A stretch of DNA of 64,000 nt, taken from NCBI RefSeq assembly GCF_024169315.1, contig NZ_JALJWR010000001.1:141001-205000 (forward strand). Direction: 5' to 3'. Source of the DNA: Pseudomonas migulae (GTDB lineage: Bacteria > Pseudomonadota > Gammaproteobacteria > Pseudomonadales > Pseudomonadaceae). Position 1 is the stretch's first letter. Every line of letters starts with the position of its first letter. Positions 7,459-10,872 of the stretch are shown here, piece by piece. A model generated the notes under the pieces. That model worked only from the letters and a program-made list of their open reading frames with translations, was not told the DNA's origin and did no database searches. The position numbers and the translations under genes are program-made.

Positions 7459-7791
7459 TCAGGGCTTGCCTGGGGCTGCGACTGGCGCCGCTATCGGGCG
7501 TACGGTGAGTTCCAGACCACTCGCTGTCATCAGCTTCCTGATTGTCTCAAAGCGCGTTTTCGTTCCGCCTTTAAGCACCTTATAAAGGCTTTCGCGGTTG
7601 ACCCCTGCTGCCTGGGCGACTTTGTTTACGCCAATAGCTTTTGCAACCTCACCCAGCGCATGAACCAGCGCCGTGTCACCTGCCTTCATGCTTTCAGCAA
7701 TGTAAGCAGCCATTATTTCCGGGCTGTCGAGGAAGCGGGAGGCTTCGTGACGTGGTGGTTGCGCGAGTATCGACAATGCGAATGTGCGCAA
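7459..7791 (-). CDS. orphan HigA-like antidote (COG3636 type), altered at both ends
   Basis: 110 residues. The central part resembles the putative addiction-module antidote family, with SPEIMAAYIAESMKAGD, then an XRE-type helix-turn-helix (GVNKVAQAAGVNRESLYKVL). No HigB/RelE-type toxin lies next to it. The first ~19 residues come from the duplicated unit that starts at 7754, so the native start has been replaced. The stop at 7459-7461 is a TGA in the middle of a reading frame that continues for 27 Ala/Lys/Pro-rich residues to a second stop at 7378-7380. That tail looks like the natural C-terminus. Function as an antitoxin is doubtful. Confidence 0.6.
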   Translation of the reverse strand: MRTFALSILAQPPRHEASRFLDSPEIMAAYIAESMKAGDTALVHALGEVAKAIGVNKVAQAAGVNRESLYKVLKGGTKTRFETIRKLMTASGLELTVRPIAAPVAAPGKP

Positions 7792-7828
7792 TGAGTGTGA
7801 GAGCTATAAACGTTGAATCAGCTAAAAG

Positions 7829-7873
7829 AGTGATAGATCTATTTGAGTTAATTAGACCTGTCACCCTTTTTTT
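7829..7873 (+). terminator. T-run hairpin inside repeat copy 1
   Basis: GAGTGATAGATCT and AGACCTGTCACCC pair imperfectly, followed by seven Ts. It is related to the hairpins at 7308 and 9169. It lies just beyond the 3' end of the minus-strand gene at 7954, but its T-run is on the plus strand. Confidence 0.45.
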
Positions 7874-7953
7874 CAAATTTAGTTCCTCGGTATGCATTAT
7901 GAAGCGAGAAGAGAAGGTTTAAAGATGGCATAAGGGGATTTGAGAGGTTTTTA

Positions 7954-8412
7954 TCAAATGTGCGTAAGCCCTACCTCCTTCCAGAACGCCTTGCCGCCGT
8001 TAGGTCCATCAAAGTGCGTTAGTATTGCTAGTCTAATTAATTGAGGGGGCCAGCTACGACGGATAAAAAAAGTATATCTATAGTCATGCCACGTGCCATC
8101 CTGCCACATAGCATCTGGTGAAGGAAGATAATGTGAAAAGCCTCCATGCATGACTTTAATACCTAGATTGGCTCTATAATAAGAGCCATGAGGGCCAGAC
8201 ATGCAGTACTCGGTGGTTTGAATATACACATTTGTGTCGGTGTATCCATAATGGCCTTTCATATGCGATTCAAATCTTATATCAGTTTCACCTCTTGCGT
8301 GCATCCAAAAATCGCTCCAGATGATATTTTCTATACCATCAGATAGGCCTTCTTGACCGTCATTATGTGAGCCGTCTTGCAATTGTTTTTCTGGATCAAT
8401 TGGTTGGTTCAT
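7954..8412 (-). CDS. unknown 152-residue protein, paralogue A
   Basis: I recognise no family. The protein is soluble (no signal peptide or membrane segment), acidic at the N-terminus and rich in His, Tyr and Trp in the second half. The gene is much more AT-rich than its surroundings, which suggests transfer. It is preceded by a GGTGA ribosome site. Paralogue B (9294-9752) differs at 16 residues (54, 58, 72, 91, 92, 94, 105-107, 110, 112-114, 116, 117, 122). Thirteen of these fall between 91 and 122, while the flanking DNA is almost unchanged. Immunity or recognition proteins show this kind of pattern, but no toxin partner is visible. Confidence 0.75.
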   Translation of the reverse strand: MNQPIDPEKQLQDGSHNDGQEGLSDGIENIIWSDFWMHARGETDIRFESHMKGHYGYTDTNVYIQTTEYCMSGPHGSYYRANLGIKVMHGGFSHYLPSPDAMWQDGTWHDYRYTFFIRRSWPPQLIRLAILTHFDGPNGGKAFWKEVGLTHI

Positions 8413-8833
8413 GTGATCACCAGTCGAGGATTTTGTTGGTTATTAGTGCTTTATTTGTCGGTATCTGCGAGCTTTAAAATTAATCCACAACCATAATAGG
8501 TACCGAAAATGGATTGATCTACTGTCATAACTGACAGGTTTATAGTTTGATTTCGACTGGCCTGATACGTCTATGCAAACCTTTGGTTATATTTCCTTTT
8601 TTATGCCCTAATCACCGGTCGAGCATTCTGGTGGGGGTCGGGATCTTTAGGGAAAAAAGCGCTTACTAACAGGGGGTATAAAACAGTATTCCTTATTTTG
8701 ATCTTTATTCTTTGTGCCTTTTAAACCAATGTCCCGGTAAATCGGGTCATTGGTTTCTTCGTTTGAACAGGTAGTGTTCCCGGTCACCTTGGCGACACTA
8801 TTGTTGTGGGTGGTCACGATTCTTTATTGGACG
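8413..8833 (-). other. AT-rich non-coding DNA upstream of paralogue A
   Basis: No plausible gene. About 300 bp directly upstream of the gene is nearly identical in both repeat copies, so the promoter of the 152-residue gene was probably duplicated with it. An imperfect long hairpin (8723-8731 with 8748-8756, inner CCCG/CGGG) is present only in this copy. Confidence 0.5.
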
Positions 8834-9094
8834 CTTTCGCGTTTGATGTGACAAGGCTGAATGCCACTGTTTCGGGCTTGTCACGGTGATTAGGGGTGTG
8901 TGAAGACCACTTAGGAGTGGGGTGCAGGTTTTGGGGCCACTTCGTAGCCATACGGGGATAAATCCCCTCACCATAAAGGGTGAATTCCTACGAAATGATG
9001 TTCGCCGTACCTGCAATGCAGAGACGGGCCATGGCGGGTGTAACAGCATCGATAACCATGACCAGTGCTTATTGTGCGAAGCCAAAACGGTAGC
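8834..9094. other. spacer between repeat copies, with a diverged intergenic element
   Basis: The first ~170 bp (8828-9003) resemble 10586-10757, sharing GGACGCTTTCGCG, CAAGGCTGAATGCCACTG and GGGGATAAATCCCCTCACC. After GAATTCCTAC the two diverge. The remaining ~90 bp (9004-9094) match nothing else in the window and hold no supported gene. Confidence 0.6.
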
Positions 9095-9168
9095 GGTGGT
9101 TGCGCGAGTATCGACAATGCGAATGTGCGCAATGAGTGTGAGAGCTATAAACGTTAAATCAGCTAAAA

Positions 9169-9213
9169 GGGTGATAAATCTGTTTGAGTTAATTAGACCT
9201 GTCACCCTTTTTT
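9169..9213 (+). terminator. T-run hairpin inside repeat copy 2
   Basis: GGGTGATAAATCT and AGACCTGTCACCC pair over the outer six bases, followed by six Ts. It is the counterpart of the hairpin at 7829. Confidence 0.45.
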
Positions 9214-9293
9214 CAGATTTAGTTCCTCGGTATGCATTATGAAGCGAGAAGAGAAGGTTTAAAGATGGCATAAGGGGACTTGAGAGGTTTTTA

Positions 9294-9752
9294 TCAAATG
9301 TGCGTAAGCCCTACCTCCTTCCAGAACGCCTTGCCGCCGTTAGGTCCATCAAAGTGCGTTAGTATTGCTAGTCTAATTAATTGAGGGGACCAGCTACGAC
9401 GGCACCAAAAATAATGTTCATAGTTATGCCACGCGCGATTCTGCCACATGGCATCTGGTGAAGGAAGATAAAATGAATAGCTTCCATGCATGACTTTAAT
9501 ACCTAGATTGGCTCTATAATAAGAGCCATGAGGGCCAAGCATGCAGTACTCGGTGGTTTGAATATACACATTTGTGTCGTTGTATCCATAACGGCCTTTC
9601 ATATGCGATTCAAATCTTATATCAGTTTCACCTCTTGCGTGCATCCAAAAATCGCTCCAGATGATATTTTCTATACCATCAGATAGGCCTTCTTGACCGT
9701 CATTATGTGAGCCGTCTTGCAATTGTTTTTCTGGATCAATTGGTTGGTTCAT
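9294..9752 (-). CDS. unknown 152-residue protein, paralogue B
   Basis: Same length and start context as paralogue A, and no recognised family. At codon level I count 16 amino-acid-changing codons against one silent change (Ala101, GCT/GCC), with the first 53 codons identical. In the variable stretch this copy reads YEHYFWC where A reads YRYTFFI. Identical flanks together with changed residues point to selection for difference or to conversion from a third, unseen variant. It may form a transcription unit with the small gene at 10114, which lies upstream on the same strand. Confidence 0.75.
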   Translation of the reverse strand: MNQPIDPEKQLQDGSHNDGQEGLSDGIENIIWSDFWMHARGETDIRFESHMKGRYGYNDTNVYIQTTEYCMLGPHGSYYRANLGIKVMHGSYSFYLPSPDAMWQNRAWHNYEHYFWCRRSWSPQLIRLAILTHFDGPNGGKAFWKEVGLTHI

Positions 9753-10113
9753 GTGATCACCAGTCGAGGATTTTGTTGGTTATTAGTGCTTTATTTGTCG
9801 GTATCTGCGAGCTTTAAAATTAATCCACAACCATAATAGGTACCGAAAATGGATTGATCTACTGTCATAACTGACAGGTTTATAGTTTGATTTCGACTGG
9901 CCTGATACGTCTATGCAAACCTTTGGTTATATTTCCTTTTTTATGCCCTAATCACCGGTCGAGCATTCTGGTGGGGGTCGGGATCTTTAGGGAAAAAAGC
10001 GCTTACTAACAGGGGGTATAAAACAGTATTCCTTATTTTGATTTTTATTCTTTGTGCCTTTTAAACAGGCAGTGTTCCCCGGTCACTTTGGCGACACTAT
10101 TGTTGTGGGTTGG

Positions 10114-10410
10114 TCACGATTCTTTATTGGACGTTTCAAACCCACGCTGCTCAATCACCCGGAACACATCCCCTACATCCCGGAGCAGGATCAAGGCGAT
10201 GTTGGTGACGGTGTTGATGTCGTTTTCGGCGTAGTCCGGCAGGCTGGTGCAGGCCATGAGGTTGAGGTATTTGAGGACGGCGTTGAGGCGTTCGCTGACG
10301 CAGTTGTGCAGTTCGCGGATGGGGGCGTCGCTGTCGATGAGGAGGACGGGGTAGTCGGTGGCGAATTGGGACATGGGGGTGAAGCGGTGCGGCGGATGCT
10401 GAGTGTTCAT
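10114..10410 (-). CDS. small hypothetical protein, 3' end rewritten by the repeat
   Basis: 98 residues, predicted helical, with no signal peptide. It resembles the short, poorly characterised proteins common in P. fluorescens genomes, but I cannot assign a domain. The ATG at 10408-10410 (MNTQHPPH) is chosen over an upstream in-frame start at 10446, because the upstream part lies in a conserved leader. The last six residues (TSNKES) are encoded by the edge of repeat copy 2, so the native C-terminus has been replaced. Confidence 0.5.
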   Translation of the reverse strand: MNTQHPPHRFTPMSQFATDYPVLLIDSDAPIRELHNCVSERLNAVLKYLNLMACTSLPDYAENDINTVTNIALILLRDVGDVFRVIEQRGFETSNKES

Positions 10411-10872
10411 GGATGTAGTCCGGAAAAGATGAATCAAAATTGCCATTACTGGTTCACCGACGAAGGTCGGCTACGCGGGTCTGGCGGTCTTTGGTGTCTC
10501 CTCTTTTGGGCTGCGAATCCCGGTCACCGACAATGGCGGCGACGGAGGAAACTATAAGCGGCGATTTTGATGCTCACAACCGGGCTGTAGGACGCTTTCG
10601 CGGTTGTTGCGGCAAGGCTGAATGCCACTGTTTTAGGGCTTCTCGCGGTACTTCGGGCCGTGTGGAGGGCCTTGGGAAATGGTGTGCAGGGTTTGGGGCC
10701 GCTTCGCAGCCCAACGGGGATAAATCCCCTCACCACAAAGGGGGAATTCCTACACGTATTTCGGACGTCAGGTTTGAAAGTCGAGTGGCTAGAAATGACA
10801 AAGCCCCAATCATTGGGGCTTTGTCATTTCAAACTGTGGTGTTTTCCAATCGCTATCGCGGATCCCCCGACA
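10411..10872 (-). other. leader region and repeated intergenic element of the small gene
   Basis: 462 bp without a supported gene. Reading on the minus strand toward the small gene, it holds the hairpin at 10794, then the element 10586-10757 (also at 8828-9003), then a segment at 10441-10539 bounded by GCCATT and AATGGC inverted ends. The layout suggests a structured 5' leader or a repeat family of pseudomonads. A short frame here (10524-10736) is discussed under rejected items. Confidence 0.4.
10792..10830. terminator. long perfect hairpin, probably bidirectional
   Basis: AATGACAAAGCCCCAAT (10794-10810) and its exact reverse complement (10812-10828) form a 17 bp stem, extendable by two bases. 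It has no long T-run, but TTTGTCATTT follows the GC core. It separates the accessory patch from the PLDc_N gene at 10873. Confidence 0.65.

What the first reader, a model, noticed from the sequence alone, without database searches (positions are those of the whole stretch)
7954..9752. Twin 152-residue genes differ almost only at amino-acid-changing sites
Two copies of an unknown gene lie in a recent direct repeat. Their shared ~290 bp upstream DNA differs at about one base and the first 53 codons are identical. Yet I count 16 amino-acid-changing codons and only one silent change, and 13 changed residues cluster between 91 and 122. Drift in a fresh duplicate cannot easily give that ratio. It suggests selection for new specificity, or patch conversion from a third variant, as known for immunity, recognition and receptor-like proteins. 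The AT-rich composition points to horizontal origin.
Basis: partly seen in the sequence, partly recalled or inferred. Interest (0 to 1): 0.78.

Follow-up and report, generated by a model that had tools for sequence, protein, structure and literature searches.

The report
Twin genes differing in one patch
A Pseudomonas genome carries two neighbouring copies of a small gene of unknown function that are almost identical except in one 32-residue patch, the same patch that changes fastest across a little-known protein family also found at insect-toxin-type loci, so the pair may give the cell two versions of one recognition protein.

Summary
The counts are right: 17 of 152 codons differ, 16 by replacement and 1 silently; 13 of the 16 lie in codons 91-122. 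"Fresh duplicate" is not supported. The repeat is a mosaic: upstream DNA plus codons 1-53 differ at 1 of 459 bases, the gene's end at 0 of 93, the patch at 19 of 96, part of the repeated spacer by 21%. Copy 1's spacer is nearer to genome G382 (15%) than to copy 2's; G382 has no twin gene there. Replacement excess is likely, not proven: Fisher p 0.014 (codons 54-122), 0.051 (91-122); neutral simulation P 0.035-0.088. Independent support: over 18 disjoint pairs of relatives the most diverged 32-residue window starts at residue 91, rank 1 of 91. The proteins belong to an unnamed Pseudomonas beta-sandwich family that also forms the N-terminal module of roughly 1,100-residue Ig-repeat proteins; in 4 of 4 such loci scanned the next gene is of Tc VRP1 type. 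Best account: two versions of a recognition module, uniform outside the contact patch. Neutral mosaic is not excluded. Ligand unknown.

The parts
7954..8412 (-). Twin gene, copy 1 (152 aa)
   Evidence: ORF; relative in G128 at the same site, 37% identical
9294..9752 (-). Twin gene, copy 2 (152 aa)
   Evidence: ORF; 89% identical to copy 1
8047..8142 (-). Patch, codons 91-122 of copy 1
   Evidence: 19 of 96 bases differ from copy 2
9387..9482 (-). Patch, codons 91-122 of copy 2
   Evidence: Same comparison
8413..8712 (-). Upstream DNA of copy 1, nearly identical in copy 2
   Evidence: 1 of 300 bases differs
9753..10053 (-). Upstream DNA of copy 2
   Evidence: 1 of 300 bases differs
7754..7953 (-). 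Downstream DNA of copy 1; array end
   Evidence: 6 of 199 aligned bases differ, all transitions, plus a gap
9095..9293 (-). Downstream DNA of copy 2
   Evidence: Direct repeat D2/D1
8829..8996 (.). Spacer of copy 1, old part
   Evidence: 21% from copy 2 spacer, 15% from G382 on 168 columns
10590..10758 (.). Spacer of copy 2, old part
   Evidence: Part of it (10585-10690) searched: only these two places in the genome
10114..10446 (-). 110-aa ORF that borders the variable site; missing beside copy 1
   Evidence: 123 of 398 genus genomes have a relative; gap in copy 1
7459..7791 (-). Antidote-like ORF whose start is lost where the array begins
   Evidence: PF21716 from profile position 5; intact in G382 and G262

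Best explanation
The twins are two versions of one small beta-sandwich protein from an unnamed Pseudomonas family. The family occurs as stand-alone proteins (114-193 aa) and as the N-terminal module of 1,076-1,397-aa Ig-repeat proteins. They sit in a chromosomal site whose cargo differs between genomes. Upstream DNA, N-terminus and C-terminus are nearly identical, either by gene conversion or because both derive recently from one cassette; residues 91-122 form an island of divergence. The same segment changes fastest in the family. The likely reason is that it contacts a variable partner and that having different versions is favoured. Shown: the mosaic, the family, the coincidence of island and fastest segment, the empty site. 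Inferred: that the protein binds a partner through this segment and that selection keeps the copies different. Open: ligand, export, and whether the pair arose by old duplication plus conversion or by capture of a second cassette from another lineage (the spacer tree leans to capture).
For: Mosaic divergence; spacer unique to the two copies and copy 1 spacer grouping with G382, support 0.853; empty site in G382 and G262. Family's most diverged 32-residue window starts at residue 91, rank 1 of 91; patch more diverged than the rest in 13 of 18 disjoint pairs, Wilcoxon p 0.005. Changed positions inside 91-122 are the more variable ones in 58 relatives (mean entropy 2.38 against 1.46, one-sided p 0.005). 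22 replacement against 1 silent change in codons 54-122, p 0.014; 2 of 23 at third positions, p 0.007. Both frames intact.
Against: Patch divergence equals that of the old spacer (19 of 96 against 38 of 182, p 0.88; the 182 include a poorly aligned stretch), so an unconverted neutral remnant fits. Silent-site tests are marginal (0.051; 0.035-0.088). 5 of 18 family pairs show no excess in the patch. One changed position, 105, is well conserved (D in 50 of 58). No ligand, no export route, no functional annotation.
Confidence: 0.45

Rival explanations
1. Neutral mosaic: two diverged cassettes came together; conversion or recent shared descent made most of the gene alike and the patch is merely the stretch left unconverted. 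No selection for difference is needed.
For: Patch and old spacer are equally diverged (p 0.88); neutral simulation gives the observed silent count in 3.5-8.8% of runs.
Against: The unconverted stretch coincides with the family's fastest window; changes favour family-variable positions and avoid third positions (2 of 23).
Confidence: 0.3
2. Fresh tandem duplication in this genome followed by strong positive selection on the patch in place.
For: 1 of 300 differences upstream, 0 of 159 in codons 1-53; dN/dS above 1.
Against: The spacer of the repeated unit is 21% diverged, and copy 1's is nearer to G382 than to copy 2's.
Confidence: 0.08
3. The twins are immunity or decoy proteins against a polymorphic effector, and the patch matches different attackers.
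For: Two neighbouring near-identical variants with a variable patch would fit; relatives occur stand-alone and as modules of large proteins.
Against: No effector gene was recognised beside the twins and the relatives form part of the large protein itself.
Confidence: 0.1
4. Targeted hypermutation by a diversity-generating retroelement.
For: 21 of 23 changes at codon positions 1 and 2.
Against: One reverse-transcriptase match in the genome, 6.3 Mb off in contig coordinates or about 0.2 Mb if the contig is a closed circle; the patch matches only the two genes, 12 other hits being short with E 0.7 or more, so no template repeat was seen.
Confidence: 0.02

Closest known systems
Duplicated genes under gene conversion with a peak of divergence (red and green opsins; review PMC3924837, passages read; PMC3728101, abstract seen in the listing)
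   Same: Near-identity over most of the pair with one diverged island
   Different: Here the island is about as diverged as the old spacer, the function is unknown, and capture from another lineage is as likely as duplication
N-terminal module of Ig-repeat proteins beside Tc VRP1-type genes in Pseudomonas (L013-L016)
   Same: Same domain by sequence, 26-30% identity over the matched part, same conserved positions
   Different: The twins are stand-alone, have no Ig repeats and do not lie at a Tc locus; the own genome's Tc locus lacks a recognised copy of the domain
Diversity-generating retroelement targets
   Same: A short variable segment in an otherwise constant protein
   Different: No template repeat seen and no nearby reverse transcriptase

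Membership tests
Unnamed Pseudomonas beta-sandwich module family (defined here) | Sequence match to the family profile over most of the domain | tested here: met
   Both twins match profile positions 19-170 of 172 (E 3e-41 and 6e-41); the profile was built with them, so the independent test is: G128 E 3e-12, 37% identity
Unnamed Pseudomonas beta-sandwich module family (defined here) | Conserved positions Y69, R80-N82, S98, D100, W108-H109, D135-G136 | tested here: met
   Present in both twins; invariant or nearly so in 29 rows
Tc-locus Ig-repeat protein | Ig-like repeats after the module and a VRP1-type gene next door | tested here: not met
   The ORFs are 152 aa; the genome's one VRP1 match is at 4.94 Mb, far from the window
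Paralogues under gene conversion with a selected island | Low divergence flanking a peak | tested here: met
Paralogues under gene conversion with a selected island | Selection on the peak | tested here: inconclusive
   p 0.014, 0.051, 0.035-0.088
Paralogues under gene conversion with a selected island | Duplication in the same lineage before conversion | tested here: inconclusive
   Spacer tree joins copy 1 with G382, support 0.853, 168 columns
Diversity-generating retroelement target | Template repeat and linked reverse transcriptase | tested here: not met
Known fold family | Clear structural match | tested here: inconclusive

The most novel reading that the evidence does not exclude
Pseudomonas keeps a family of fast-changing recognition modules, used both as heads of Tc-associated Ig-repeat proteins and as stand-alone cassettes in a variable chromosomal site; the twins are a two-member repertoire in which selection for two specificities keeps one 32-residue segment different while the rest is held alike.
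Probability: 0.3. Interest if true: 0.68.

Novelty: new variant of a known kind. Interest (0 to 1): 0.5.

Why it matters
It gives an unannotated protein family, found at Tc-type loci, a concrete handle: the segment that changes fastest in the family is also what separates two otherwise almost identical neighbours, so comparing the two natural proteins isolates what that segment does. It would also be a compact bacterial case of divergence persisting while the rest of a gene pair stays alike.

Tried and rejected
Retroelement hypermutation: no template repeat seen. Third genomic copy as donor: none. Compensating frameshifts in the patch: the gapped alignment stays ungapped. Phage or plasmid record with a relative: no match by tblastn of one twin in 50,697 phage and 72,556 plasmid records. 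The array's DNA in 37 other genomes: 5 had matches, all 64 bases or shorter, mostly an interspersed repeat. The 110-aa ORF as a dedicated partner: it is in 123 of 398 genomes, and of 29 loci inspected 2 (G046, G128) have a family member downstream, so it rather marks the site. Close DNA pairs in the family for dN/dS: not obtained (0 and 5 relatives). One search's pair count (patch more diverged in 122 of 135) reuses sequences and holds some proteins twice; one search replaces it. P0010 and P0023, which look frameshifted or cut, were dropped from the alignment before structure and divergence work. The forced alignment of 7754-10123 is not used. Fold searches gave only common beta-sandwich matches. 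Surface location of the patch: no coordinates available. Papers: searches on Tc clusters with Ig-like terms listed none that I recognised as describing the module; of these I opened only PMC5006985, by term search ('Ig-like', 'immunoglobulin', 'hypothetical': 0 occurrences). One search (gene conversion and immunity genes) listed 4 papers, none on bacterial gene pairs by title.

Full report
Observation. The ORFs are real and as described. Of 152 codons 17 differ, 16 by replacement and 1 silently; 13 replacements are at residues 91, 92, 94, 105, 106, 107, 110, 112, 113, 114, 116, 117 and 122, the other 3 at 54, 58 and 72. dN/dS by Nei-Gojobori is 0.063/0.011 over codons 1-151 and 0.223/0.050 for codons 88-125.

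Strength of the ratio. Codons 54-122 hold 22 replacement changes on 159 sites and 1 silent on 48 (one-sided Fisher p 0.014); codons 91-122 hold 18 on 76 and 1 on 20 (p 0.051). Random placement of 23 changes gives at most one silent codon in 3.5-8.8% of runs. Third positions take 2 of 23 changes (p 0.007). So dN/dS above 1 is likely, not firm, and the region was picked after seeing the data.

A mosaic. From copy 1's downstream end to its spacer the differences are: downstream 6 of 199 (all transitions) and a gap; codons 123-152 with stop 0 of 93; 91-122 19 of 96; 54-90 4 of 111; 1-53 0 of 159; upstream 1 of 300; spacer a 2 of 71, b 19 of 77, c 10 of 78, d 9 of 27, the last poorly aligned. A search with 10585-10690 finds only the two places in the 6.5-Mb genome, so the spacer belongs to the repeat. 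Copy 1 lacks the stretch of about 460 bases that holds most of the 110-aa ORF beside copy 2. Of 11 other loci tried 7 yielded the spacer, 4 did not; copy 1's spacer groups with genome G382 (0.15) and not with copy 2's (0.21), support 0.853, 168 columns; copy 2 to G382 is 0.11. Outside the array own and G382 differ by 6-9% in 5 segments and 2.5% in the 110-aa ORF. The whole unit is therefore no fresh in-situ duplicate: either old copies were made alike by conversion, or a second cassette was captured from another lineage. The tree rests on few columns and copy 1's branch is long.

Site. In G382 and G262 the 110-aa ORF is followed by an intact antidote-like gene and no twin. In the window the match to that gene stops at 7752, within two bases of the array's end at 7754, and its N-terminal part is missing. 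G128 has one relative, 37% identical, between the same XRE-cupin regulator and the 110-aa ORF. Several other loci with the 110-aa ORF show other genes downstream. The twins' GC is 0.43 and GC3 0.38-0.39, against GC3 0.59-0.83 in 5 neighbours.

Family. The single sequence finds only its own paralogue in the protein collection, yet 7 loci in 6 other genomes of 398 searched. The profile finds 29 of 398 genomes, own included: 8 with strong matches (E below 1e-39) and 21 with weak ones (E 2e-10 to 2e-5); 23 small proteins, one of them the paralogue; and, with a long member as query, 31 proteins of 1,076-1,397 aa. No curated family covered the domain in the proteins scanned, and the only solved-structure match by sequence had E 1.7. 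In 4 of 4 long-protein loci scanned the next gene encodes a VRP1 protein; that this is the Tc A-component type is recalled knowledge. Two weak-match genomes, G107 (two members in tandem) and G244, have members whose N-termini look like signal peptides by eye, followed by ORFs that look like an ABC exporter; MacB_PCD and FtsX were confirmed in G107 and OEP in G244.

The patch in the family. Among 58 relatives, positions changed within 91-122 are more variable than unchanged ones (entropy 2.38 against 1.46, one-sided p 0.005), though position 105 is conserved. In 18 disjoint pairs of relatives with 70-99.5% identity the patch is more diverged than the rest in 13 and not in 5 (means 0.181 and 0.110, p 0.005), and of 91 windows of 32 residues the one starting at 91 is the most diverged. 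The pairs are disjoint but share ancestry. They played no part in choosing the patch, which makes this the best independent support.

Structure. Two AlphaFold2 models (mean pLDDT 76.9 and 79.3, pTM 0.71 and 0.73) show an all-beta fold; the patch covers the turn and strand 90-97, the loop 105-107 and the strand 108/109-118. On that last strand the even positions 110, 112, 114 and 116 are all changed, and so are 113 and 117, which by alternation face the other way. Fold matches are weak.

Mechanism. I favour a recognition protein whose variable segment meets a changing partner, with two versions side by side. A review describes such divergence peaks in duplicated genes under conversion (PMC3924837, passages). 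The neutral mosaic is the main rival and is not excluded, since the patch is as diverged as the old spacer (p 0.88).

Noticed in passing
7459-7791: Antidote-like gene (PF21716) whose start is lost at the array end; intact in G382 and G262.
   Followed up: partly
10114-10446; L114-L142: A 110-aa ORF family in 123 of 398 genus genomes that borders a site with differing gene content; no Pfam or NCBIfam match.
   Followed up: partly
L093:6181-7210, L099:5806-6276: Weak relatives with signal-peptide-like N-termini, in tandem in L093, upstream of MacB-type and outer-membrane efflux ORFs; possible export cargo.
   Followed up: partly
L102:5964-10579: In G112 a stand-alone 139-aa member lies next to a 1062-aa Ig-repeat protein with a similar N-terminal module.
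   Followed up: no
L086:1351-1824: A weak relative whose N-terminus resembles, by recall, a leader of exported peptides.
   Followed up: no
L090:2077-8601: A 2174-aa Ig-repeat ORF beside the own genome's single VRP1 gene, on the opposite strand.
   Followed up: no
L020:1123-2421: The genome's single reverse-transcriptase match, a 432-aa ORF far from the window; type not determined.
   Followed up: no
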